Part shown: in pieces, positions 12,150 to 44,624 of the stretch | Layout: every line of letters starts with the position of its first letter | Position numbering within the stretch: position 1 is the stretch's first letter | Assembly: GCF_032854445.1 (NCBI RefSeq) | Contig: NC_088297.1 | Span: 24,749,127-24,813,126, forward strand | From: Liolophura sinensis | Lineage: Eukaryota > Mollusca > Polyplacophora > Chitonida > Chitonidae | Direction: 5' to 3' | DNA: 64,000 nucleotides | Notes under the pieces: generated by a model | Told to the model about the DNA's origin: nothing | What the model saw: the letters and a program-made list of their open reading frames with translations, nothing else | Database searches by the model: none | Made by a program: the position numbers and the translations under genes

Positions 12150-13770
12150 TGTATAACATAATAAAATACGGCTACAGAATAGAGAGTAAACCAGAGCAGC
12201 GACGACAGTGTGGTAGGTGGCAAATGGTCACACATAACCGGTGAAACATGACTACAGCAAAGAGGATAAAACCAGAGCAGCGACGACAGTGTGATAGCTG
12301 GCAAATGGTCACACCTAACCGGTGAAACATGACTACAGCAAAGAGGATAAAACCAGAGCAGCGACGACAGTGTGATAGCTGGCAAATGGTCACACCTAAC
12401 CGGTGAAACATGGCTACAGCAAAGAGGATAAAACCAGAGCAGCGACGACAGTGTGATAGCTGGCAAATGGTCACACCTAACCGGTGAAACATGACTACAG
12501 CAAAGAGGATAAAACCAGAGCAGCGACGACAGTGTGATAGCTGGCAAATGGTCACACCTAACCGGTGAAACATGGCTACAACAAAGAGGATAAAACCAGA
12601 GCAGCGACGGGAGTGTGATAGCTGGCAAATGGTCACACCTAACCGGTGAAACATGGCTACAACAAAGAGAATAAAACCAGAGCAGCGACGACAGTGTGAT
12701 AGCTGGCAAATGGTCACACCTAACCGGTGAAACATGGCTACAACAAAGAGGATAAAACCAGAGCAGCGACGGGAGTGTGATAGCTGGCAAATGGTCACAC
12801 CTAACCGGTGAAACATGGCTACAACAAAGAGGATAAAACCAGAGCAGCGACGACAGTGTGATAGCTGGCAAATGGTCACACCTAACCGGTGAAACATGGC
12901 TACAGCAAAGAGGATAAAACCAGAGCAGCGACGACAGTGTGATAGCTGGCAAATGGTCACACCTAACCGGTGAAACATGGCCACAGCAAAGAGGATAAAA
13001 CCAGAGCAGCGACGGGAGTGTGATAGCTGGCAAATGGTCACACCTAACCGGTGAAACATGGCTACAGCAAAGAGGATAAAACCAGAGCAGCGACGACAGT
13101 GTGATAGCTGGCAAATGGTCACACCTAACCGGTGAAACATGGCTACAACAAAGAGGATAAAACCAGAGCAGCGACGGGAGTGTGATAGCTGGCAAATGGT
13201 CACACCTAACCGGTGAAACATGGCTACAACAAAGAGGATAAAACCAGAGCAGCGACGACAGTGTGATAGCTGGCAAATGGTCACACCTAACCGGTGAAAC
13301 ATGGCTACAGCAAAGAGGATAAAACCAGAGCAGCGACGACAGTGTGATAGCTGGCAAATGGTCACACCTAACCGGTGAAACATGGCCACAGCAAAGAGGA
13401 TAAAACCAGAGCAGCGACGACAGTGTGATAGCTGGCAAATGGTCACACCTAACCGGTGAAACATGGTTACAACAAAGAGGATAAAACCAGAGCAGCGACG
13501 GGAGTGTGATAGCTGGCAAATGGTCACACCTAACCGGTGAAACATGGCTACAACAAAGAGGATAAAACCAGAGCAGCGACGGGAGTGTGATAGCTGGCAA
13601 ATGGTCATACCTAACCGGTGAAACATGGCCTCTTGTAAATTTAGGTCACTAAGGGTTTCATTCTAACTATTCATGTAAATGCTTAAAAGTCGAAAATTAC
13701 ACGCAGAATTAGGTAACAAATGCAATTTACAGGACGTAACTGGTGCTGTATTATCATCACATTTAACACA
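12150..13770 (+). mobile_element. interspersed repeat family A, copy with 81-bp array
   Basis: The left flank (CATAATAAAATACGGCTACA) and the right flank (GGCCTCTTGTAAATTTAGG, TTCTAACTATTCATGTAAAT, GCAATTTACAGGACGTAAC) match the single-unit copy at 10940-11240. Between them the core unit is amplified about 18-fold. Confidence 0.75.
12199..13627. repeat. 81-bp minisatellite inside family A
   Basis: Nearly uniform 81-base units (about 17.6 copies) carrying GAGCAGCGACGACAGTGTGA and GGTCACACCTAACCGGTGAA. Variation is confined to a few positions (ACGACAG/ACGGGAG, CTACAGC/CTACAAC), which shows recent homogenisation. Because 81 is divisible by three, two minus-strand frames stay open for more than 480 codons (for example 12134-13600). 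These are artefacts. Confidence 0.95.
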
Positions 13771-23148: not shown

Positions 23149-23690
23149 TTAAACTGACCGGCCAGCGCGGGAGATGATTGACTGAAGGCGCGACATTTGC
23201 TTCTGCTCTACGTGATCTAATTTAGAATCATACTCCTGGATGCTAGCAAGGGATTTGTGTCCCGTGACTTGCATAATTTTATGTGGAGCGACGCCAGATT
23301 TTACAAGGGTTTGAACGGTTGTTTTTCGGACCGAGTGATTAGTTTTCCGGCCTTTCAGTCCAGCAGCCTCGGCTGCCCTCTTCATTAGCTGTCCCAAACG
23401 ATGCTCTCCCATTGGAGTGGAGTAATACCACACAGCTGCATCAGGTTTGAGATTTGTTTGCCACAACCATCTCTGCACATTTTTAACATCGCGATTTGTG
23501 CTCACAACTGTGTTTTTCTTCTGTTGCGAATCAATAAAGGCATTTACATCATTTACTACTTCATCTCTACTGGTACTTGGTGTTGCTTCTAAATGTTGCC
23601 CAGCTCTGGGTCATCAAATGGATCAAGTAGCATGCAAATTTCAGCGTCGGTGAGATCAAAAGGGTCAGAATCTGATTGATCGGCAGCCAT
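23149..23690 (-). pseudogene. Crypton-type tyrosine recombinase, internally deleted copy
   Basis: A frame of at least 118 codons (23505-23149) ends in a DUF3504/Crypton-type tyrosine recombinase C-terminus. It has the PMGEHRLGQLMKRAAEAAG segment, the HSVRKT box (H-x-x-R catalytic pair), VTGHKS, and EYDS, which may hold the nucleophilic Tyr. This is the domain known from KIAA1958, QRICH1 and ZMYM2-4. Upstream, an ATG at 23690 opens an acidic N-terminus (MAADQSDSDPFDLTDAEIC) that reaches a stop at 23591-23589. One frame shift links it to the second frame at about AGQHLEATPSTSRDE. The recombinase-core half, including the first catalytic Arg, is missing: NVQRWLWQTN, typical of the region before the core, passes straight into LKPDAAVW, typical of the C-terminal part. 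I read it as a deletion derivative. An intron cannot be excluded for the N-terminal junction. Confidence 0.8.
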
Positions 23691-29981: not shown

Positions 29982-30045
29982 AGTGCTAAGAATATACAAA
30001 CAGTCTTTAAACGCGTCAGGTAAAGCAAAAAGTTTTTCGTGTTCT

Positions 30046-30285
30046 AGGCCCAGTTGTTTGAAAGTGTATCAGACAATACTGGTATTTAGCTATATTCTAT
30101 AATTTAAATTTTAACTAAGCTCAGCAGCCGACGCAGCTCTGCAAAGTCAAAGTAACACAACAGCAGCTTTAGTTCATATTTAATATACTGTTATACAATT
30201 TTTTTCAGCTAAGTACAAAATTGAAGGCTTGGCTTATAGGTAAATCTGGTATTAAATATTAAACCAGTTTGAACAACCGGGCCCT
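30046..30285. mobile_element. MITE-like element with GGCCC...TTGTT inverted ends
   Basis: The left end AGGCCCAGTTGTTTGAAA and the right end TTTGAACAACCGGGCCCT are inverted repeats with two mismatches and one gap, 240 bases apart. The internal sequence is AT-rich and non-coding. Confidence 0.55.
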
Positions 30286-30833
30286 GGAACCGAAGAAAAT
30301 AACATTTCTTTGTAGCAGCGGCTAAATAAGATGTGTTAGTAAGAATGTCCTCTACACGTCATCATTTTTCCTATAATGTCGGCCCACAGATTTGAATAAG
30401 TATACTTACCTGGCGGATTTAAATATTTTCCTTTGATATACAAAAACTTCGCACATTAAGTTAGGATCTCAAAGGAATAACTTACAGCAGAAGTCTGTTC
30501 AACAGTTATTCGTGAATCACATGAAAACTAATACCAAAAAGTTGAAAAGATGAATACAGTATTTTAGTACCAGAGAAGTTTTACAGGGAATATGTAGATG
30601 GTACTGGAAAACACAACGCTGGGCCATGCCTCGTACGTGCACATGGTCACAAAGGTCACGTATGAACCAGGATTTCTTTATAGTAGGCTAGTCTCACAAT
30701 GAGATTTCCGTTTGTATTGCGTCACATGAGGTTCAGCGAACAGTCTGGCAGTATAAAGACAATAACGGAGGTTCAAAACGATGACGTCAATAATGGTGGT
30801 ATTCACACCTTTAATTTCACGTAAACTGCAACT
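30286..30833. other. 3' flank of the sulfotransferase-like gene
   Basis: No element recognised. It probably contains the 3' untranslated region of the minus-strand gene, but no clear AATAAA signal was found on that strand. A CRE palindrome lies at 30782-30789. Confidence 0.4.
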
Positions 30834-33553
30834 TTAACCGGTGAAAGTTTTCTTGTTTGCGTCGGAAAGCATTTGGGCATGTTTCCATCGTGATTTTCTC
30901 ACAAATGGTATCTCCGAAATAAGCATGAGGCTGCAGTCATTTCTATTTATTGCGAAAACATCGTTGAATTTTGTTTCTTGGAATAACAAAGAGCTGTTGG
31001 CATGAGTGTCCGTGCCATTGTTTTTTACACTAAGACAATATGATTCTGTTTTCCCCAACATACCCTTAAAGACACTAACTTCCTCCCAAAATTCCCTGTT
31101 CTCTTGTGTTAGTCTTAGCTTGAATCGACTCAGGAAGTGGTCGTACAACATGGTGTCCGCCATTGAAAAGTTTTTATGATACGACAATTCCTCTTTGCTG
31201 AAAACAATATGGGGTCTCTTATTTTTCATGGCGTTCCTTTTGATGTAGAGCACGTCTTTGAGCTTCCAACACATCAAGCGTTTGAGGAAAATCAGAGATT
31301 CGGCGAAATATTCCAATATCATCACCAGGTCAAATTCCGAGTCCAGTTTTTTTAGATATTTAGTGATAAAAGTTCGATTACGGAACATGCGACCAGGTAA
31401 CCCGAAATCAAAAGCCATGCGATTATTGGTGAAGGATCCAGGTGAATTGTCGTACTTTTCCCGGTGACGTAAATATTCTCTTAACTTATCATTTCCTGGA
31501 ATCTTGGTATAACGCTTCAAACGCCAAACCACTCTGTAATACTCGAACGCCGATATCGTCAGCGAAAGCGGCTCTCTAACGATGCCGATGTACTTTGCGT
31601 CCGCTGGTAAAAGTTTAGCGAACTTCTTCCGGTCATAGTGATGCACGTGGTTGAACAGCATGTCGTACGAGTTGCGTCCCTTTGGAAGGAACAGCAAATT
31701 CTTAAAGTTACTGTGTATTATGTGGCTAGGAGAAGGCAGGGCTACCAACAGGTTATTGTCCCATGCAAATCTTTGTAGGATGTTCATGATGGTAGTGGAC
31801 CCGGCTTTGTGCACCTTGAGAAACGCTAGGCTGGTGTGCGCAAGCGTGCATTTTGTATGAGATGCACGAGATGGTGGAGCTTGGAGGTGTTGTTGTTGCT
31901 TCTGGCCCTTAAACACATTCTGCCACGTTATATGTGCCCGTTGTAAGGGAAGAAAATCTTGAGAGTAGAGTAGAACACATGCAACAGTGGCAGTTGCAAG
32001 ACCAATAAATGTGGTTCTACTGAAGACAAGAAAAACAAAACAAAATAATTAAAGTCAGGCTGAATACAAACATAATAGTTCTGAAAATATATTCGTAAAG
32101 AAAAATTCTGACATTTTTAAGGAACAAAGCTTTTTTACTGTTGGCGCGTTAATGGTCATCTGGTTTCCCCATGTAGACTGTGCGATTTCTCCCAGATCTA
32201 CGGATGGTCGTGGTTTCCTCCCACCATAATGCTAGCCACCGTCGTATAACTAAAATGTTCCTCTATGGCGTAAAACACCAATCAAATAAATAAATAAAAG
32301 TTGCCACTATGGCAGGAATACTGTCTTAGCACGAAGGTCATATGACAGGTTAACCAGATCGATAGACTTAGATAGATCTTTAGCACGTGACCCCTTCTGT
32401 GACCTAATGGCCTCAAAGCCTGGAGGCCCTGGATCAAATCCGGGTCCGGTCATACCAAAAACGTGTAGTTGTTTATATTTAGATTGGCGTTATGCACTGA
32501 TAGGTTCGATCAAGGAACAGGGACTGGTTGGGGCGGTTCAGTATAATGTGACTGGCTGGGGTGTCATGTTTGGTGTCTTCGGCATGATGAAAGCACTTTG
32601 GCGGAATGAACTCGCCTTGCCAAAAGAACACATTGCATATGTTCAAACACAAAATCACTTCTCGTCGTCATATGAATGAAAAATTGTTAAGCACGACGTA
32701 AACCCCCCAGCATTCACACATACAGAAAATTTACCGTTCCCTGTACGCTTGCTTTACACCACTGCCACTACTAGACAAGCTTGACTTTAGGTGCCTGTGA
32801 GAAGAACGCATGTCAAAATGTTAGCGGGATAACCTTTAACAAAACCCCCAGAATATATATTAAAAGGCTTAAAGTACTGCACTGAAAATTATCTCACGCC
32901 GTTTGGGATTAGGATATCAAAATGCGGGCTACAAACTGTTATTGTGGAAAATGTCGCTCAGCTCTCGGCAAATGGCGTCCGACTATAGCGTGCCTTAGGA
33001 TAAAAACCATATTGTGCATACGATTCGTGTCAGCACAGCATAGTGGCAAAAGGAACATGCACACGATTTCACGTAAAATCCAGCATTACACACACCCTGT
33101 AAGTTTAAACGTTACAAGCTAATTTGTACACATTTTTTCTTTCTTTCTACTTTATTTTTCCTTATACACCTCCTCGTTTAGCGCATTTTGTCGTCGATCT
33201 ACCTTTATCATTCGCCCCCAATCTCACTGTGTTAGTGACAACAAAAAAGAGGTTGACGATGCTCACTTGACCGTTTGCGCACTCTAACTTTCGTTAAAGA
33301 TCGCTTGTCTTTCCCCATTATGATGTGTATATCTGTATGCCAGAGGTAGAGAAGTTCGTCAATCACTTGCCAAACGTCCGTGGTTTCCGCCAGGCATTCT
33401 CGTTCTTTTTATAAAATGACCTTCAACTGAAACATACTTCAGCCTTGTTTTAAACAACAATGAAATAAATAATTAAATATTATTTGTAATTCGCCGAGCT
33501 AAATTAAAACAAAAATCTTGCTCGTCTTACCTTGATATAGTTATCTTTTCCAT
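30834..33553 (-). CDS. galactose-3-O-sulfotransferase-like protein, two exons
   Basis: Predicted Golgi type II sulfotransferase that would move sulfate from PAPS to the 3-OH of galactose on glycolipid or glycan acceptors (GAL3ST family). Exon 2 (32019-30834) is open throughout and ends in TAA. Its 5' edge is a good acceptor (TTTTTCTTGTCTTCAG). Exon 1 (33553-33531) has an ATG with A at -3 and G at +4 and ends ATCAAG|GTAAGA. Joining them keeps phase and gives 402 residues, close to the family's length of about 420. Residues 10-26 (TTFIGLATATVACVLLY) form a signal anchor after a nine-residue cytosolic tail. Residues 75-84 (LKVHKAGSTT) are the 5'-phosphosulfate loop, 128-138 hold FNHVHHYD, and 154-161 (IVREPLSL) the 3'-phosphate site. 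N-glycosylation sequons occur (NRT, NFS, NGT, NSS). The intron holds three SINE pieces. Exon 1 is short and is inferred from splice logic. The acceptor sugar and the exact paralogue are not known. Confidence 0.85.
32190..32298 (+). mobile_element. SINE family 1, 5'-truncated, in the intron
   Basis: CTCCCAGATCTACGGATGGT, GTTTCCTCCCACCATAATGC and AAAACACCAATCAAATAAAT. It is antisense to the sulfotransferase-like gene. Confidence 0.85.
32394..32712 (+). mobile_element. SINE family 2, in the intron
   Basis: GGATCAAATCCGGGTCCGGT (B-box-like), TGGGGTGTCATGTTTGGTGT, CATGATGAAAGCACTTTGG and the tail TCGTCGTCATATGAATGAAA. It aligns by eye with the inverted copy at 34180-34468. Confidence 0.85.
33345..33478 (+). 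mobile_element. degenerate SINE family 1 fragment, in the intron
   Basis: Weak match: CCGTGGTTTCCGCCAGGCAT, ACTGAAACATACTTCAGCC, AACAACAATGAAATAAATAA. It lies just 3' of the exon 1 donor on the gene strand. Confidence 0.45.
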
Positions 33554-34179
33554 CCTCTTTGTTCTCCGAATAACTGCCTTCTCCTCTGTACACAGCAGAC
33601 TCGTTTAGAGAAATCCAATGTCGTCGTATACACTGTAAAAAGTGAACTTTGAATCACCACATGAAAAGCCACGCGCCAACGTGTAAAAGTCGGTATAATT
33701 AGGTAAAGAGTATACAGTCTGCGCACTGGCTGTGTAGCCGTACATGTCGCTTCTCTATGTATGCTCCTGGTCATTGTTAGGTGCGATGGATTTTTAAGAC
33801 GTTGGCTCAATATTGTTACAAAGTATTGATTGCAAAGAACAAATAATAAAATGCTGACATTCAAATATGGACGTTTGTATGTATATCGATCGATGTGTGT
33901 GTGGCGACAGATATGAAGACAATACAGTCAATTTGTCAGTCAGACATTGTCTCGAAACAGGATGATTTGTTTGGATGAATTCGTTACACCAGTGGCCATC
34001 CATTCATCTCTTGAGTTTTTTTTTTTAATTCCTTGTTGAATCTGCAGGCTTCTTTGGTGGGTAATTCCAGTGAAGTTGAAATACATGTAGTGCTTCGATC
34101 AATGAAGTGTCACAGGGGAGGGACTGCTGACCAAGTGCCCGTACTGAGTGCCCGTATTAAGTGCACATATGCATACTGG
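33554..34179. other. 5' flank of the sulfotransferase-like gene
   Basis: Presumed 5' untranslated region and promoter of the minus-strand gene. No clear TATA box or other exon is seen. A poly-T of about 15 bases lies near 34017-34026. Confidence 0.35.
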
Positions 34180-34468
34180 GCGTTTTACGTCGTACTTAAC
34201 AATTATATAGTCATATGGCAACGAGGAGTCATTAGGTGTGTATATATATACTGTGTCTTCTTGTGACAAGGCGCGTCCATGCCACCAAAGTGATGCCACC
34301 AGTATCATGCCGGAGACACCATACATGACACCCCTCTCAGTCACATTGTACTTGTTTACTTCCTTTCGCCTCTCAGTGCGGAGCACTAGGTAAGGCACCA
34401 ACAAGTATCATTTTTAAAGTCTGGTATGACCGGATCCGGATCTAATCATTAGGCCACCGCCGAGGTCC
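34180..34468 (-). mobile_element. SINE family 2, inverted
   Basis: Starts with GGGCGTTTTACGTCGTACTT and AGTCATATGGCAACGAGGAG. Then come TGCCGGAGACACCATACATG and ACACCCCTCTCAGTCACATT, ending with the reversed B-box GGTATGACCGGATCCGGATC. Confidence 0.88.
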
Positions 34469-35021
34469 GTATTGTGTGTATACCGCCCACCTCAGGTCAC
34501 GTGATCACTCAACATGTGACCGAAGAGATTTCATTGGAAGACCTGGGGCACGAACCTGTAACTGGGTGCGACTACCTGGAGTGTTTAATTTAGTCAGGGT
34601 CCTACTGAAGCGAACCGAATGATGGAGAAGCTGTGCAGCGCAGGCTTTTGCAAGATGCTACGATGGCAGGGCTGGCGAAGAATTATGAACAGACGAACAA
34701 ATTTCAAGACAACATGTTCGAGAATTTTGCTACCATCTTTCAACAGCCGCAATCTACAGTTTTCTAGAAAAAAACCCACAAAAGACATTGTCACTAAACA
34801 ATTTCTCGTTACAACGTTACATTTTTTTTCCATTCCAAGTGAATCGGTATATTTTTTTTAATCCCGTGAGGCGGCTCTAATGTGAAACAGGATCTCGAGC
34901 CATTGTTACGTCAAAAATGGATTGTAGCGAACGTCTACACGGTTACAATGTATCAGTTTCTGTTGTAATATCGTATTGTCTGTAATGTAACTCCATAGTG
35001 AGGAGCTGGGAAAGGAACATT

Positions 35022-35043
35022 TGACGTCAATGAAATGACGTCA
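35022..35043. promoter_or_regulatory. two perfect CRE palindromes 14 bp apart
   Basis: TGACGTCA occurs at 35022-35029 and again at 35036-35043. They lie about 1.5 kb upstream of the start codon of the sulfotransferase-like gene. CREB/ATF binding is known for this motif. A role here is only a guess. Confidence 0.35.
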
Positions 35044-35329
35044 AGGTCCTGCTGCCGGGTGTAGGACAGGTTCCCATTGTGACGTTAGGATATTACAGAA
35101 AGATTGAACATTTGTAACCTATGTGCGGGAAATCCGGTTAACCTGCTTGCAACAATATTGATTATGAATGGCCAAATGCATGTTCTTGCTTGACAGTTCG
35201 GAAAGGTCCAGTGTCCAGCTTTCAGCTTGGACGCCAAGTAAATACAAGTATCTGTTCAATATGGCCGCCAAACGACCTGTTCTCTTCTACAGTTTAAACA
35301 TTCCATAGAATTCATGAATTTCTTCGGGG

Positions 35330-35505
35330 GGGATCCCCCGTGGCCGAGGTGGTTACCACGCCAGCGCGACGGAGTGACCCGGGAGCCTCTCACCAATGCA
35401 GTCGATCTGAGTTCAAGTAAAAGCTCATGCTGGCCTCCTCCCCAGCCGTATGTGGGTAGGTCTCCCAGCAGCCTACGGATAGTCGTAGGTTTCTCCCAGG
35501 ATTAT
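35330..35505 (+). mobile_element. SINE family 1, head and mid body, 3'-truncated
   Basis: CCCCGTGGCCGAGGTGGTTA head, GGAGCCTCTCACCAATGCAG, CAGCAGCCTACGGATAGTCG. It lacks the usual tail after TTTCTCCCAGGATTAT. Confidence 0.85.
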
Positions 35506-35802
35506 AATATTGATCACGACAATTCTTTATCGCCGCCGTCTCATCCACATTGACCGTAACACCTGTTCAAATATAGTTCAACAAAACCCTAATTGCTATT
35601 TTCATAGCTTGTGATATGGGAGTGTACAAGACAATAACGACTTTTTATTTTCTTCTGTATTAACAGAAACACAGGTATAAAAGGGGGAGTTCATCGTCAC
35701 CAGTTACCCAGTTTTCGAACATATCGATCATTTTCTGTCCCTGTTTTGTGTGTTTTTCATTTTTTTAAAGAAGAATGTCCATTTCTTTAGATTAATTGAA
35801 TT

Positions 35803-35925
35803 ATTTGCTTATTTCATTAGTGTTTAACGCCATTCTTCTGAATTTTTCATTTATGGCACCGGCAGTCGTATTTATGGGTGGGGGAGACAGGATTGCCGTT
35901 TTCCATTACTTCATGCTTGACAACT
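35803..35925 (-). mobile_element. degenerate SINE tail
   Basis: ATTTGCTTATTTCATTAGTG, TTTAACGCCATTCTTCTGAA, TTTTTCATTTATGGCACCGG. Only the tail region is recognisable. Confidence 0.5.
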
Positions 35926-36029
35926 TTCTTGACTTATAGCTTCGACAGAAAAAGCCAGAGATGGATCGAACACACGAGTTTAGAGGATCACTTGGGTGGT
36001 GACCAACGCTAAGGAGGTTATATTTATGC

Positions 36030-36125
36030 CGTCGTCCGTCCGTCCGTCCGTCCATCCCTCCGTCCCTCCGTCCCTCCGTCCCTCCGTCCCTCCGTCCCTC
36101 CGTCCGCCCGTCCGTCCGTCCGTCT
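36030..36125. repeat. (CCGT)/(CCCT) tetranucleotide microsatellite
   Basis: Perfect to near-perfect CGTC and CCTC repeats over about 95 bases. Confidence 0.92.
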
Positions 36126-37371
36126 CTCGATCTGTAAGTTTACAGGAATAGTTATGTAGGCATTTGAATGAAATTTTATGCGCAGATTGGTCTCGTGCTG
36201 ATGATGGATCCAGTAAATTAAGGTGTTGATGGGGATCGATTTTCAACCGCTAGCGGACACACCAAAAATGTATTGTCCCTTGGTCAGCAGAGCTGGAACC
36301 CAAATAATCCTTACGCTGTTTAAGTGTTTTCTAATGTTAAAATAGGCTCATCTCGTACATTTATAATTATTTTATTTTTATTTCACTAATTTAAGGTACC
36401 GAAAGCGGTGTGCTGAGACATGTTTGATGTGAAACAAATTGATTGTCTTTAGGTTGATCTGTTTCTGAATATATAGGATTGAAGTCTTTTGGGCGTCTAA
36501 AAATGGCGTTATATGTTACATTAATCTCCTGCAAAATACCAAAAGGCTGGTGGTTTTCTCTCAAAACCATCAGGGTTGCACCGAATTACCTCCCTTGAGG
36601 TCACTCTCACGTTTAAAAGGTGCGTTTTTAGGGATAAGCAACGGATAGACAATGGATAAGTTCAAGAGGTAAAGCGACTTGCTAGTTAAAGAACTAACAT
36701 TAAGACAGATTTTAAGTTTGTAAACTTATTTGGAAAGCTCAGGTTAAAATGAGTTTTCTGTAACCTACGGAATTAACACTAACAAATTGCTACAGATGAC
36801 ATGCCACATACAAATCGTCAAATGCCCATGCATTTACTCTTTATTGTACACCATTGCATACCAATACATTGCTGGTACTTTGCCGGGTAAATGTAATGTA
36901 GTCCTGTGAAAGTTAGTAGTAAATACAAATTCGTTGTATTGTGGCTTTTACTTCATATCCTAAGAAACATTTCACATGCATGTACAAAATCTTCAAATAT
37001 GTTATCTTTCAATATGGTAGTTATGTCACAGGTCATTTTAAAGTACAGTTATATTCAAACCCTTCATTGTTGTATACAATATCCTTCATATACACTGACC
37101 TCCAGTGTACATGATTTTAGGTGGTAAACAAATTTCACTTGATAATATTTCGTGTACTATAGTCACGTGGCTGTACTCCTGTGTTTACATAGTTTTACCT
37201 ACTAGATGTACGAATCCAGTGTTTTCACATAGTAAATCATTACAAACTGTAAGTGATATATATTTAAATGCAACTTATTTAATAATGCCTTACGTATGTG
37301 TTCTTTATAACCATGCCTCAACATTCGGTAAGATTCAATAGTCTAAAATTCTTTCTTTAAATCTGATCTGG
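36126..37371. other. intergenic, no gene seen
   Basis: AT-rich. Several short open frames without domains. Confidence 0.5.
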
Positions 37372-37492
37372 CAGTGGGTTTCCCCGGGTTTACCCCTGTT
37401 TCCTCCCACCATGATGCTAACCGCCGTCATATCAGTGAAATATTCTTGAGTAAGGAGTAAAACACCATTCAAATAAGTAAATAAATTAAATC
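37372..37492 (+). mobile_element. SINE family 1 3' fragment
   Basis: GTGGGTTTCCCCGGGTTTAC, TTTCCTCCCACCATGATGC, GTGAAATATTCTTGAGTAAG and an AATAAGTAAATAAATT tail. Confidence 0.88.
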
Positions 37493-38838
37493 TTACCTGG
37501 CCCGAGCATGCTTCTGGAATAGTCGGAAGTTGAAGGATCCCACTTATTCCAAATCCACATATCCGGTGTTCGACATAAGATGCTCGAAGTTCATCGCTTT
37601 AAGCCTCAAACTGTACAATACAGATCCGTGCTTTCCCTCCAAGTGCACCGTCCTCGTGTGTGTTCGGCACTTCGTCCATCCGGTTCATTCTGCGAAATCA
37701 TATAAATGGAGTGTCTATAAGACGCCCTATTTATTCGGTAAGCGCGGACCTTGTCGATAGTATCGTTTGGTAGACTCGCGCAGAGACACCCGGATGTTCG
37801 AATTTGCATTTATTTCTAGGTTAAACGAAGTAAAAGTAATGAATTTTGAGGGTTTTGCGCTACTAATGTTAACGTGTCTAAATCGTTGTATACATAATAT
37901 ACATCAAATTCCAGAGCGTTTCAGGGTGTATAACTTGATATCCGTTTTAATCGTTTTGACTGTATAAGTAACCAGATATCTTACCTGGAATTTTAAAAAG
38001 AAACACACTAGTATCAGACATTGCTTTTATGTTGCCTTGGTTGGAGTATTGTATATGGGCTTAATAAAAAGAAAGCCTGGATTTCTACATCATTGTATTC
38101 CAACACCAGTTTCGAACTTTCGTTCTTCTCAGAGATATGAAGTACTAATAGTGTAAATGAATGATTTTGAAAAGTAAGGTAGGCATTTATTTGACATCAA
38201 CAACATAAACACAAAATCAGATCGGTCTAGTACAACAATCTCACAATGCAGAGATTAAATAATCCTTATAATGTAGCACATACAAGGACAGTTGTTTAGT
38301 TTGATAAACAGGTCTAAAAAACCCCGGTATAAATTTGTATCTGCTAAACACGAATTAAGGAAAGTGATTTCCATTTAATAAAAAGGCTTGTGTAGTTCAA
38401 TAAATACAATTTCTTTAACATCTATCACGATTTGGACCCGAGCTCTTGGTTTAATTGTTAGATATCGTGACGTGTGCCTTACACGGATTATCAGAAGAAA
38501 AGTTACAGGGGCTATCGACAATAAATGACTTGGATTATAATAGTTCAGTCTACCACTATTATTCAATTTGGGTAAAGTATGAATGACAATGGGAAAATCT
38601 GTTGTTAGGAATGTACATAGTTACCAGAGGTATGATAGGTTTTGTGTTTTACTAAAACTTTTCTTAATTCACTGGTGGGTCGGGAAGTGGCTTTCTTTAA
38701 CTCCTGATCAATGGCCTGCTGGGCACCCCTTAGTGATTAAGGTTTTTTTGACGTACAAAAATGCGCACCACATTCCCACAGCAAGAACGCAATGCTCTAC
38801 CAATTCACTCACCGACTATATAGTTTTTTAGTCCCCTG
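37493..38838. other. intergenic, no gene seen
   Basis: No recognised element or coding frame. Confidence 0.5.
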
Positions 38839-38839
38839 A

Positions 38840-39075
38840 TTTATTTACTTTATTTATTTGATCGGTGTTTTACGCCGTACTCAAACCGTACTCGCATTAT
38901 GGTGGGAGAAAACCGGCCAAAGGCCGGGAGAAACCCAGGACCATCCGAAGATGGCTAGCAGATCTTCCCACGTACGATCCGACAGGAAGCCAGCATGTGT
39001 TGGAGCGACCGCATTGGCAAGAGGCTTGTGGGTCACGCTCCGCTAGCGCGCTAACCAACTGAGCCACGGAGGCCT
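38840..39075 (-). mobile_element. SINE family 1 with internal deletions
   Basis: TTATTTATTTGATCGGTGTT, TTACGCCGTACTCAAACCGT, ATTATGGTGGGAGAAAACCG, then the full head CTAGCGCGCTAACCAACTGA. Parts of the tail-side body and of the B-box region are missing. Confidence 0.92.
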
Positions 39076-39837
39076 CTTAATTGCCTGAAACCTGGTACAT
39101 GGTAATACGATAATAAGCTGTAGATCAAGTATAATTTTCGGACCTCTATGTCTAAATTAGACAAAATTACGGCTGTCTGTAATTTTTCTCCAGACTGATT
39201 TTAACACAATTCATTATTTGAATTGAAACTTGGTACATGCCTTACTCGTAACAATTACAAACCAATTTCCAGTTTGGACCCTTTAGTCCAATTTCTACAA
39301 AATTACGCACGCTTTTGTCCAGTTGTGGACTTCAACAGTTTCCCAGACTCTTTTTCAAAACAGTTCATCGTGTTGAATTGGAACTTACTACAGGCCTTTA
39401 CTGTGCCGTGTCTTCCATTTTCAACAAAATTATTACCGTCTTCATCTTGTTTTTGAATTTTGATAGTTACACTGATTATTTTCAAACTGATTAACTGTAA
39501 AAAGTCGGGACTATAAACACAGATTCACCATCAGACTTTTTATTGATACGGTTCGACTGTTGAGGAAGTAAGAATGTACAATGTGTATTTGCCCTTTCAG
39601 TTGAAGAACGAGTTTTAACTCTGTATGTCTAACTTTAAGACTTCAAGATTGTCTCGATCATCTGTGTATAACTAGCTCAGCTGCCATACGTTTATCACCA
39701 CGTGCTCTCATGTACAATAGACGCACTCCAAAAGTGCACAGTTTATTTCGTTAAAAGTTGCTGTGGTGATTAAATGCTTCATAAAGTTAATATTTAGGCA
39801 AAGGTTATTTAGCACGTGCGTTTTCCCACCAGCCTTT
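39076..39837. other. intergenic, no gene seen
   Basis: Loosely repeated phrases (AGACTGATTTTAACACAATT, ACTTGGTACATG, CCAATTTC) recur between 39110 and 39420 and suggest an old, decayed duplication. No gene. Confidence 0.4.
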
Positions 39838-40055
39838 GCTTATTTATTTATATGACTGTTGTTTTACGCCGTACTCAAGAATACTTCACTTACATGTCGG
39901 CGACCACCATAAGTTGGTGGGGTAGTGGTGGTGGGGGTTGGGGGGGATTGGAAAACCTACGACCATCCAAAGGCTGCTAAAAGACCTTCCCACGTAGGGC
40001 ATTGGTGAGAGCCTCCTAGGTCATTGCGCAGGGCGAGCTCTCTAACCACCTCTGA
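39838..40055 (-). mobile_element. SINE family 1, diverged
   Basis: TTATTTATTTATATGACTGT, TTTTACGCCGTACTCAAGAA, CCATCCAAAGGCTGCTAAAA, CTAACCACCTCTG. A G-rich stretch replaces the central body. Confidence 0.85.
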
Positions 40056-41212: not shown

Positions 41213-43720
41213 ATGGCGTCGACGACAGGTAGAAAACGTTTGGTGAGTCACAATTTATCGAAATTATCGAATACCGGGCTAGTGTAGTTCCCCAAAAATG
41301 CTTAGAAAGCCAACGAGAATGCATCAAACATGTTAAAAGAGTACTTACGGAAAAAAAGGATAGGACCAGGAGTTTTCCAACTTTTCTTCTGAACAACTAT
41401 GTGAAGTGCTGTGTCACCTCTATGTGGATGCCAGGAAGGGTGATGGACAGCGATATGATACCAGGAAAGGTGACGGGCAGTGGTATGATGTCAGGAAGGG
41501 TGATGGACAGCGGTATGATGTTAGGAAGAGTGATGGACAGCGGTATGATGTCAGAAAGGGTGATGGGCAGCGGTATGATGTTAGGAAGGGTTATGGACAG
41601 CGGTATGATGTCAGGAAGGGTGATGGGCAGAGGTATGATGTTAGGAAGAGTGATGGGCAGCGGTATGATGTTAGGAAGAGTGATGGGCAGCGGTATGATG
41701 TCAGGAAGGGTGATGGGCAGCGGTATGATGCCAGGAAGGGTTATGGACAGCGGTATGATGTCAGGAAGGGTTATGGACAGCGGTATGATGTGAGGAAGGG
41801 TGATGGGCAGCGGTATGATGTCAGGAAGGGTGATGGGCAGCGGTATGATGTCAGGAAGGGTGATGCCAGAGAAAGGGTGATGGGCAGCGGTATGATGCCA
41901 GGAAGGGTTATGGACAGCGGTATGATGTCAGGAAGGGTGATGGACAGCGGTATGATGTTAGGAAGAGTGATGGACAGCGGTATGATGTCACGAAGGGTGA
42001 TGGACAGTGGTATGATGTCAGGAGGGTGATGGGCAGCGGTATGATGTCAGGAAGGGTTATGGACAGCGGTATGATGTCAGGAAGGGTGATGGACAGCGGT
42101 ATGATGTCAGGAGGGTGATGGGCAGCGGTATGATGTCAGGAAGGGTGATGGACAGCGGTATGATGTTAGGAAGAGTGATGGGCAGCGGTATGATGCCAGA
42201 GAAAGAGTGATGGGCAGCGGTATGATGTGAGGAAGGGTTATGGACAGCGGTATGATGTCAGGAAGGGTGATAGGCAGCGGTATGATGCCAGAGAAAGGGT
42301 GATGGGCAGCGGTATGATGTCAGGAAGGGTGATGGACAGCGGTATGATGTTAGGAAGAGTGATGGGCAGCGGTATGATGTTAGGAAGAATGATGGGCAGC
42401 GGTATGATGTTAGGAAGAGTGATGGGCAGCGGTATGATGTCAGGAAGGGTGATGCCAGAGAAAGGGTGATGGGCAGCAGTATGATGTCAGGAGGGTGATG
42501 GGCAGCGGTATGATGTCAGGAAGGGTGATGGACAGCGGTATGATGTCAGGAAGGGTGATGGACAGCGGTATGATGTCAGGAGGGTGATGGACAGCGGTAT
42601 GATGTCAGGAAGGGTGATGGACAGCGGTATGATGTCAGGAAGGGTGATGGACAGCGGTATGATGTTAGGAAGAGTGATGGGCAGCGGTATGATGCCAGAG
42701 AAAGAGTGATGGGCAGCGGTATGATGTGAGGAAGGGTTATGGACAGCGGTATGATGTCAGGAAGGGTGATGGGCAGAGGTATGATGTTAGGAAGAGTGAT
42801 GGGCAGCGCTATGATGCCAGAGAAAGGGTGATGGGCAGCGGTATGATGTCAGGAAGGGTGATGGACAGCGGTATGATGTTAGGAAGAGTGATGGGCAGCG
42901 GTATGATGTCAGGAAGAATGATGGGCAGAGGTATGATGCCAGGAAGGGTGATGGGCAGCGGTATGATGTCAGGAAGGATGATGGGCAGCGGTATAAAGTG
43001 TCCACAATCGAACATTTTTGTCATTCCTTAAACATGTATTGAAACTTGCCACCACACTTAAAACTGTCTGATATAGTAAAGGACAGGGAGTTCCACGAAG
43101 CCAATAAGTGTTTTAAAATCGTGAAGTCCATGGGAATGGGCGCCAAAGCTAACCACCTTCGCGTCACAGATGATGACAGATATAAACTGTATTCATCTTT
43201 GCACATGTGTCCAAACACACTGAGTGGATTGGCAAAATAAAAGTCAATTTGATATCCGGCTGTATTTTTGCTGTCGAGGCTGTGAAAATACGCATACCAT
43301 GACGAAAAACACTTTCACTGTTGACAACGTTGTCATTATGGAAATTTCTCCGCATTTATGCCAGAAATTCCAGACTCTGAATTTGGCCCTGTGAAATCCT
43401 TTGTGAAATACACGCAGAAGGTGCATCCAAGCTGTGAGCGCCTTTGGCAGTATCTCCAAGCTAGTGTCCTTCACAATAAGGAAGTGTGGTTTGAAAACCG
43501 GTCAAAGGGAATAAATCCCATGGGCAAATTCATGAGTGTCCTAAGTACAAAATGTGGTCTATCCCAGTTGTACACCAACCACAGCATTCGATCAACCGGG
43601 ATCACACACTCTCTGGTCAGGCCTATTTTTCCTCAGCACAGATTATGGCAATAAATGGTCATAAATCTGTACAGTCCTGTCCGTGTATCAACAGGTATTC
43701 CCAGGCGAGAAGTTGGAAAT
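41213..43720 (+). pseudogene. Crypton-type tyrosine recombinase gene split by a minisatellite
   Basis: Fragments of one DUF3504/Crypton recombinase lie in order. They are an ATG-led MASTTGRKR (41213), PKNA and NENASNMLKEYL, then FSNFSSEQLCEVLCHLYVDA up to 41430. After the array come GQRYKVSTIEHFCHSLNMY and SDIVKDREFHEANKCF to 43240. Then FDIRLYFCCRGCEN follows, where the usual first catalytic Arg region RRGxE is altered. Last come VWFENRSKGINPMGKFM, CGLSQLYTNHSIRSTGIT (H-x-x-R box) and MAINGHKS with INRYSQ, the probable catalytic Tyr. At least three frame shifts and several stops make it dead. The first stop is at 41285. The domain is that of KIAA1958, QRICH1 and ZMYM2-4. It belongs to a different lineage from the copy at 23149-23690. 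Splicing of the fragments in a live ancestor is possible. Confidence 0.85.
41427..42994 (+). repeat. 30-bp minisatellite amplified from Crypton codons
   Basis: About 52 units of 30 bases encoding D-[VTA]-R-K-G-D-G-Q-R-Y. The recombinase reads VDARKGDGQRY on entering the array and GQRYKVST on leaving it, so one copy of the ten codons is the expected host sequence and the rest is expansion. Variants with GAGAAAGGGTG inserts, 28-base units and GTTAGG/GTCAGG alternation occur in blocks. The frame stays open from 41406 to 42029 because the unit is ten codons long. Confidence 0.95.
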
Positions 43721-44624
43721 GGGTGGAGCTGTTTTATAGAACTGTGTTGGTTTGTCGTCTGACTCTTACATCGTCGTTGCTTAACAACGTACACCGGAAC
43801 ATGTTCAGAACTCCATTGTAAATGAACAGGTCAGACCTGTTTTTCCCGCAGGTAGGTCATCTAAATGCTAACCACAGCCGGCATATGCTTCTGGCCTGAT
43901 AGGGCAGCTATTCTGTGACTTTGAATGCCTTTCTAGTCAGCCGCCCTGTCACACAGTACACAATGATTCCCGACTAGTACAGTCAACTACCTAAAACCGA
44001 GGCCCAATTTTTCACAACTGTTCTACTGGAATTGTTAATATCGTGTTCAAGCAATGAACTGAAACTTGTAAACTGTGTCCCGTGCCTAAAAAAGTGCCTA
44101 AAAACAGACTTAGAACAGGAAACCGCTCAAACTTTGCTTAGTACATTGTTTTGCAGTAAAGAATCAGTGTAAAAAAATTAAACTCCCGAGTAGCTATGAT
44201 TGAAGTTTTGACTTAAGTATTAAGACATTTGATAGTTATGGACCTTAGGGGTCCGTATCACAAAGTGCACGTAACCTCAAATTTTCGAAATGAACAGATA
44301 CATTTTTACACGTTGTCAGGTTTCCGAGCAGGGCGGGAGCTCTTGTCATCGCGCTAGCCGTGTAGTCAGCCTCAGCCTGAAGTTCCAGTATTATTTCAAG
44401 AAATATTATCCGTTTCTTCGGGCTTCGTGAAAATATTGATCATCTCGAAGAAATATCAGGCCGTATACCGACGCAACACGCTAATATAACTTCTAGACTT
44501 AATCAGAATTCTGTAATTTTTCTACCTTCTCAGTTAGTCCCATGTCGGGTAAGCTTGTTTCGTCGTCAGAAGCCCTGATCATATCATAAATGGGAAAGGG
44601 AAAGGGAAACGTCTGGTGCCAGTA
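43721..44624. other. intergenic, no gene seen
   Basis: No recognised element. AGGGGTCCGTATCACAAAGT at about 44247 resembles MITE end sequence but no partner arm was found. Confidence 0.45.

What the first reader, a model, noticed from the sequence alone, without database searches (positions are those of the whole stretch)
41213..43720. A minisatellite born inside a Crypton recombinase gene, ten codons per unit
Seen: the recombinase reads VDARKGDGQRY, then about 52 repeats of D-x-RKGDGQRY, then GQRYKVSTIEHF and the rest of the domain. Removing all but one unit restores a continuous family-like segment. Established: Crypton/DUF3504 proteins carry a comparable FYVEARK...Y..ST segment once. Inference: replication slippage or unequal exchange started from a single 30-base coding stretch and went on after the gene died, or while it still tolerated in-frame growth.
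Basis: partly seen in the sequence, partly recalled or inferred. Interest (0 to 1): 0.85.

Follow-up and report, generated by a model that had tools for sequence, protein, structure and literature searches.

The report
Minisatellite grown from Crypton recombinase codons
In a large genome (probably an animal's) that is rich in tandem repeats, thirty bases from inside a dead jumping-gene recombinase have been copied about fifty times in a row; it is a clear example of a process already known.

Summary
At 41427-42994 (1,568 nt) 51 full units of about 30 nt plus two 15-nt half units interrupt a broken Crypton-type tyrosine-recombinase gene. Both flanks align, in overlapping register, to one uninterrupted relative in the same genome with one unit (L026). 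Of 56 related records examined, 40 span this point and none of the 40 has a second unit; not all matches were fetched. All 41 genome matches to the unit pattern lie in this array. So a single-copy coding stretch was amplified at one locus. Units of 29, 32 and 47 nt break the frame and each recurs, and exact blocks of 100-149 nt recur about 500 nt apart: growth continued after frame loss. A weak excess of synonymous variants (9 of 17, P about 0.01-0.02) leaves room for an earlier in-frame phase. Arrays cover 7-32% of four arbitrary 10-kb stretches of this genome. TE-derived minisatellites are a known kind (PMC3389668). No copies with intermediate unit numbers were found for this array, but a different 78-nt array in the tail of related Cryptons shows such a ladder.

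The parts
41364..41426 (+). Left recombinase flank: DQEFSNFSSEQLCEVLCHLYV, part of the N-terminal (QRICH1-like, core-binding) domain, ending directly before DARK
   Evidence: 51.7% identity over 29 aa (flank plus first unit) to L026, E 8e-8; weak Pfam matches only, DUF7648 E 0.1 and PF25561 QRICH1 E 0.13
41427..41861 (+). Left block of the array: 14 units of 30 nt and a half unit, in the recombinase frame
   Evidence: unit parsing; ORF 41364-42029
41862..42994 (+). Rest of the array: 30-nt units mixed with 29- and 32-nt units and a second half unit that shift the frame; repeated blocks at offsets 499 and 529 nt
   Evidence: unit parsing; exact blocks of 149 nt at offset 499 and 100 nt at offset 529
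42995..43240 (+). Right recombinase flank: KVSTIEHFCHSLNMY, an in-frame TGA at 43040-43042, then NLPPHLKLSDIVKDREF... to SGLAK
   Evidence: 46% identity over 91 aa (last unit plus flank) to L026, E 4e-23; 84% DNA identity of 43122-43255 to C1:52333632
43224..43391 (+). Next recombinase piece in another frame: NKSQFDIRLYFCCRGCENTHTMTKNTFTVD (candidate first-arginine region)
   Evidence: 63% identity over 30 aa to L026
43325..43651 (+). Catalytic piece with TNHSIRSTG (HxxR), in a further frame
   Evidence: 70% identity over 77 aa to L010, 44% over 75 aa to L026
43615..43735 (+). C-terminal piece NGHKSVQS...INRYSQ (candidate catalytic Tyr), again in another frame
   Evidence: 61% identity over 18 aa to L010, E 0.002; DNA homology of 43342-43973 to the locus of C13:15880911

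Best explanation
A single ten-codon stretch (DARKGDGQRY, by analogy the end of the first helix and the following loop of the core-binding domain) of a Crypton-type tyrosine-recombinase gene was tandemly duplicated at this one insertion. It then grew in place to about 51 units. The single-copy origin and continued growth after frame loss are shown by sequence. The copying process (slippage for the first steps, then unequal exchange or gene conversion of blocks of several units) is inferred from the block structure. Part of the growth, at least, took place in a dead copy, in a host genome where such arrays are common.
For: Both flanks align in overlapping register to uninterrupted relative L026 with one unit. 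None of 40 spanning records, of 56 examined, has a second unit; largest insertion 3 aa. 41 of 41 pattern matches lie in this array, 0 in the reversed control. Frame-breaking unit types recur (29 nt x4, 32 nt x4, 47 nt x2), and exact blocks of 149 and 100 nt that contain 32-nt units recur. Arrays cover 7-32% of four arbitrary 10-kb stretches.
Against: No copy with 2-10 units was found, so no step is seen directly. The two relatives found by DNA (L010/L063, L011/L064; 75-84%) do not reach the unit, so the single-unit ancestor is read from protein relatives about 50% alike. No direct repeat of 5 nt or more outside the units sits in register within 20 nt of the two edges; the one 5-nt word shared outside both edges, GTGTC, is 19 nt out of register. 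Divergence at the edges is mixed: unit 2 is the most diverged (mean identity 0.78), but unit 1 (0.88) and the last three (0.87-0.91) are within the range of the rest. The helix/loop placement is recalled analogy, not modelled.
Confidence: 0.9

Rival explanations
1. Two-phase growth: the first units were added while the recombinase was still translated and under selection, the rest after death.
For: Unit length is a multiple of three and the first 14 units are all in frame. 9 of 17 distinct unit variants are synonymous against 4.8-5.5 expected, P 0.009 and 0.017 by two ways of matching. By hand count, variants private to units 1-14 are 4 synonymous to 1 not, those private to units 17-53 are 1 to 3.
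Against: That left-right contrast is not significant (Fisher P 0.21). Seventeen variants only, with a codon-position spread of 6/3/8. Eight of the 17 are shared by both blocks (hand count), so cannot be placed. Replacement variants are frequent; Asp to Tyr (7 of 41 units) alters a residue that most of the relatives keep. A multiple of three arises by chance one time in three.
Confidence: 0.25
2. A pre-existing minisatellite was inserted into, or converted onto, the Crypton and only resembles its codons by chance.
For: The genome is full of unrelated arrays.
Against: The first unit reads DARKGDGQRY in the right frame and register at the left edge, 7 of 10 residues equal to L026; no other match to the unit was found in the assembly.
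Confidence: 0.03
3. The two flanks are parts of two different Crypton insertions joined by the array.
For: Flanks are in different frames.
Against: Both align to one contiguous relative with overlapping register; the frame difference equals the net shift of the array's odd-length units.
Confidence: 0.03
4. Copy number is an assembly artefact.
For: No reads were available.
Against: Ordered variants and distinct repeated blocks are hard to produce by collapse or mis-joining (inference); a single locus was found.
Confidence: 0.04

Closest known systems
TE-derived single-locus minisatellites, human survey (Ahmed and Liang 2012, PMC3389668; abstract, the first part of section 3, and sections 3.3 and 3.4 read)
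   Same: A segment inside a transposable element becomes a tandem array at one locus and grows in place; the survey attributes 7,276 of 31,472 human minisatellites to TEs.
   Different: Its normalised leaders are HERV, SVA and Alu, and the majority of its arrays without a known starting mechanism have only two units; here the source is a protein-coding stretch of a Crypton-type element and there are about 51 units.
Conversion of TEs to tandem repeats (review, Paco et al. 2019, PMC6947457; abstract and section 3.1 read)
   Same: Slippage or unequal crossing-over starts the array, later exchange enlarges it.
   Different: The 5-10 bp flanking repeats of the Haber-Louis model that it describes were not found in register here.
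Crypton transposons / DUF3504 (Kojima and Jurka 2011, PMC3212892; abstract and passages read)
   Same: Recombinase-like pieces in order, with HxxR and a later Tyr; relative L026 matches PF25561 (QRICH1) above and PF12012 (DUF3504) below the cut-off.
   Different: Broken copy with an internal array; the word 'tandem' occurs in that paper only in a reference title and 'minisatellite' not at all.

Membership tests
TE-derived minisatellite | Tandem array of units over about 10 nt | tested here: met
   30-nt unit, 51 full units and two halves
TE-derived minisatellite | Unit homologous to one segment of a TE that relatives carry once | tested here: met
   None of 40 spanning records has a second unit, 7 of the 40 have lost 1-6 residues there; 16 of the 56 records examined do not span the point and say nothing
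TE-derived minisatellite | Short direct repeats flanking the first unit (Haber-Louis start; one proposed way of starting, not a requirement for the kind) | tested here: not met
   No shared word of 5 nt or more in register outside the units within 20 nt of the edges
Crypton | Tyrosine recombinase with R-H-R-Y tetrad | tested here: inconclusive
   CRG, NHSIR, NGHKS and NRY can be read in broken frames. The window pieces give no DUF3504 match at E up to 1, and neither the window nor L026's place is among the 59 DUF3504 matches. L026 matches PF25561 at 31.7 bits (cut-off 30.8) and PF12012 at 19.4 bits (cut-off 29.7); of the other four relatives none passes a cut-off.
Crypton | No terminal inverted repeats; 4- or 6-bp direct repeats at the ends | not tested
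   Element ends were not determined
Crypton | Place in the recombinase tree with animal CryptonA | not tested
   No named reference sequences were at hand

The most novel reading that the evidence does not exclude
Crypton recombinases of this genome tolerated and even propagated in-frame minisatellites: this one began in the helix-loop of the core-binding domain while the gene was still translated, and a sister lineage carries a 26-codon repeat in its C-terminal tail that varies from one partial unit to nearly six among insertions, so coding minisatellites may be a recurrent feature of these elements.
Probability: 0.15. Interest if true: 0.5.

Novelty: new member of a known kind. Interest (0 to 1): 0.3.

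Why it matters
Here the single-copy ancestor of a minisatellite can be read from protein relatives in the same genome, and the recurring frame-breaking units put part of the growth after the loss of the frame. With the 78-nt ladder in related Cryptons, the genome offers a natural series for studying how arrays start and grow. The kind of event itself is known.

Tried and rejected
Intermediate copies of the 30-nt array: sought with the unit pattern, right and left flank DNA, and relatives fetched through families PF12012 and PF25561 and L026's protein; none found among the records examined, but 51 of 59, 22 of 42 and 25 of 55 matches of those three searches were not fetched, and the searches score only the best candidates. 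A DNA-level sister with one unit: the two DNA relatives do not reach the unit. Flanking short direct repeats: none in register. G-quadruplex drive: 30 overlapping two-tetrad motifs on the + strand, none with runs of three G; no control was made, not pursued. Solved structures: no match to L026 at E up to 1. Other weak Pfam matches of the broken pieces (DUF7648 E 0.1, DUF2112 E 0.15, ZSWIM1-3_helical E 0.01, Acetyltransf_13 E 0.1, Zn_ribbon_9 E 0.05, all below their cut-offs) were taken as chance. Literature: 14 papers hold 'minisatellite', 'Crypton' and 'tandem repeat' together; from titles and abstract starts none appears to describe an array in a Crypton gene. (listings) likewise; one search found none. 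This does not show that none is in print. No tree of units or of Cryptons was built and no structure was predicted.

Full report
What is there. The window lies at C3:24749127-24813126 of an unnamed 609-Mb assembly of 632 contigs; that it is an animal is my inference. At 41427-42994 a tandem array interrupts a broken recombinase gene. Parsed against the 30-nt consensus it holds 41 units of 30 nt, four of 29, four of 32 and two 47-nt composites of a 15-nt half unit and a 32-nt unit, together 1,568 nt. The 41 30-nt units are on average 91% alike.

Origin from one unit. The left flank with the first unit (41364-41459) and the last unit with the right flank (42968-43240) both match locus L026 (C10:7743071), 52% over 29 residues and 46% over 91, in overlapping register; L026 reads straight through with one unit, FYVDARKPDGEQYKAASLEAIRHGLNRYL. 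A search with L026's protein gave 55 matches in the genome, with 150 of 239 candidates scored; 30 were fetched, besides 8 of 59 from PF12012 and 20 of 42 from PF25561. I compared 62 locus records: three are the window itself and three repeat another record, leaving 56. Of these, 40 have an alignment that spans the unit and four residues on either side, and none of the 40 holds a second unit; the largest insertion is 3 residues (L040) and 7 have lost 1-6 residues. The other 16 do not span the point. The 40 include distant recombinase relatives as well as the nearer subfamily. The unit pattern (up to 3 mismatches) has 41 matches in the genome, all in this array, and 0 in the reversed control; stretches withheld or in gaps cannot be judged. 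The left flank matched only itself at the DNA level. The right flank has two DNA relatives, 81% and 84% in the first search, and neither reaches the unit, so a close DNA sister with one unit is missing.

What the element is. The window pieces reach no Pfam cut-off: the left piece matches DUF7648 at E 0.1 and PF25561 (QRICH1) at E 0.13, no piece matches DUF3504, and the window is not among the 59 DUF3504 matches. Relative L026 passes the PF25561 cut-off (31.7 against 30.8 bits) and matches PF12012 below the cut-off (19.4 against 29.7). In the broken frames one can read CRG, TNHSIR, NGHKS and NRY, candidate places of the R-H-R-Y tetrad named for Cryptons by Kojima and Jurka (PMC3212892, abstract and passages). 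Element ends and a tree were not done. 'Crypton-type recombinase' is the best reading; formal membership is inconclusive. Outside the array the right side has an in-frame stop at 43040-43042 and three changes of frame.

How it grew. Only the first 14 units and a half are in the recombinase frame. The frame-breaking pieces recur: 29 nt four times, 32 nt four times, 47 nt twice, with identical or nearly identical sequence. Exact blocks of 149 nt (offset 499) and 100 nt (offset 529) include 32-nt units. So blocks of several units were copied after the frame was broken; whether by unequal crossing-over, conversion or slippage is inference. An earlier in-frame phase is possible: 9 of 17 distinct unit variants are synonymous against 4.8 expected when transitions and transversions are matched (P 0.009) or 5.5 when base changes are matched (P 0.017). 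Against it: few variants, a codon-position spread of 6/3/8, frequent replacement variants, and no significant difference between left block and rest (4:1 against 1:3 by hand count, Fisher P 0.21). The start is unexplained: no direct repeat of 5 nt or more outside the units lies in register within 20 nt of the edges. In the human survey too, 6,817 of 7,276 TE-derived arrays lack the marks of the two established starting mechanisms (PMC3389668, section 3.4).

Context. Arrays of period 10 or more (TRF score 100 or more) cover 25% of the window, 18% and 43% of two stretches near it, and 17%, 7%, 32% and 20% of four arbitrary 10-kb stretches elsewhere, 19% together. One 10-kb part of the window, 30001-40000, has none. 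The fetched loci around recombinase matches have less: 5.6% with the window's own records, about 3.4% by my subtraction of those three; some of these records overlap. So the array is one of very many in this genome, with no sign that Crypton copies in particular attract them.

A ladder elsewhere. Such a series exists, but for another array. Two related copies, L050 and L059, 82% identical over 1,461 nt, carry a 78-nt (26-codon) repeat downstream of the catalytic region. On the recombinase strand it is open as SSSVMSPPVILPAPVTTSSSSTKPRL, in the frame of the catalytic piece but with stop codons between the two; a frame on the other strand is open as well. L050 has about 3.8-4 units and L059 about 5.6. 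L039, L054 and L057 have a 110-nt state in which only 32 nt are repeated (about 1.4 units), with similar two-piece states in L040, L044, L056 and L060; L036, L038, L051 and L053 show one partial match. The unit pattern has 21 matches at 13 loci. Whether the number rose once or several times, and whether the repeat is translated, was not tested.

Comparison and verdict. Minisatellites born inside transposable elements are known: 7,276 of 31,472 human minisatellites were traced to TEs, and 5,747 of their 5,932 clusters lie at one locus (PMC3389668); the slippage/exchange route is reviewed in PMC6947457. I saw no report of one in a Crypton gene in the listings; one search listed none. The finding is real and its reading is right. 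It is a new member of a known kind, with a readable single-copy ancestor, in a genome where such arrays are common.

Noticed in passing
L050:704-1015 and L059:481-919 (C4:14.54 Mb and C4:2.07 Mb), with L036, L038, L039, L040, L044, L051, L053, L054, L056, L057, L060: A 78-nt (26-codon) repeat in the C-terminal tail region of a Crypton lineage, from one partial unit through about 1.4 to 3.8 and 5.6 units among insertions; its pattern has 21 matches at 13 loci.
   Followed up: partly
window 1-64000; L067-L072: The genome is rich in minisatellites: 25% of the window and 7-43% of six other 10-kb stretches lie in arrays of period 10 nt or more.
   Followed up: partly
window 23149-23610, - strand: A second tyrosine-recombinase fragment (PF00589, E 4e-9), by eye close to L002 and L004 and not to the array's Crypton.
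   Followed up: no
contig C3 between 2.17 and 19.67 Mb, densest at 7.6-7.83 Mb (L023, L024, L028, L029, L031, L032 and matches that were not fetched): 24 of the 42 QRICH1-domain (PF25561) matches lie on contig C3, in open frames of 125-376 residues; a host gene family or a local burst of Crypton relatives.
   Followed up: no
window 30834-32048, - strand: A galactose-3-O-sulfotransferase reading frame (PF06990, E 4e-46), in the one 10-kb part of window 1-60000 without arrays.
   Followed up: no
window 12170-13629: An 81-nt array of 18 copies, 96% alike, with two overlapping - strand frames open for about 500 residues; more uniform than the other long arrays of the window, so perhaps young.
   Followed up: no
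L063:3385-3415: About three perfect copies of a 10-nt unit in the 3' part of a DNA relative of the window's Crypton.
   Followed up: no
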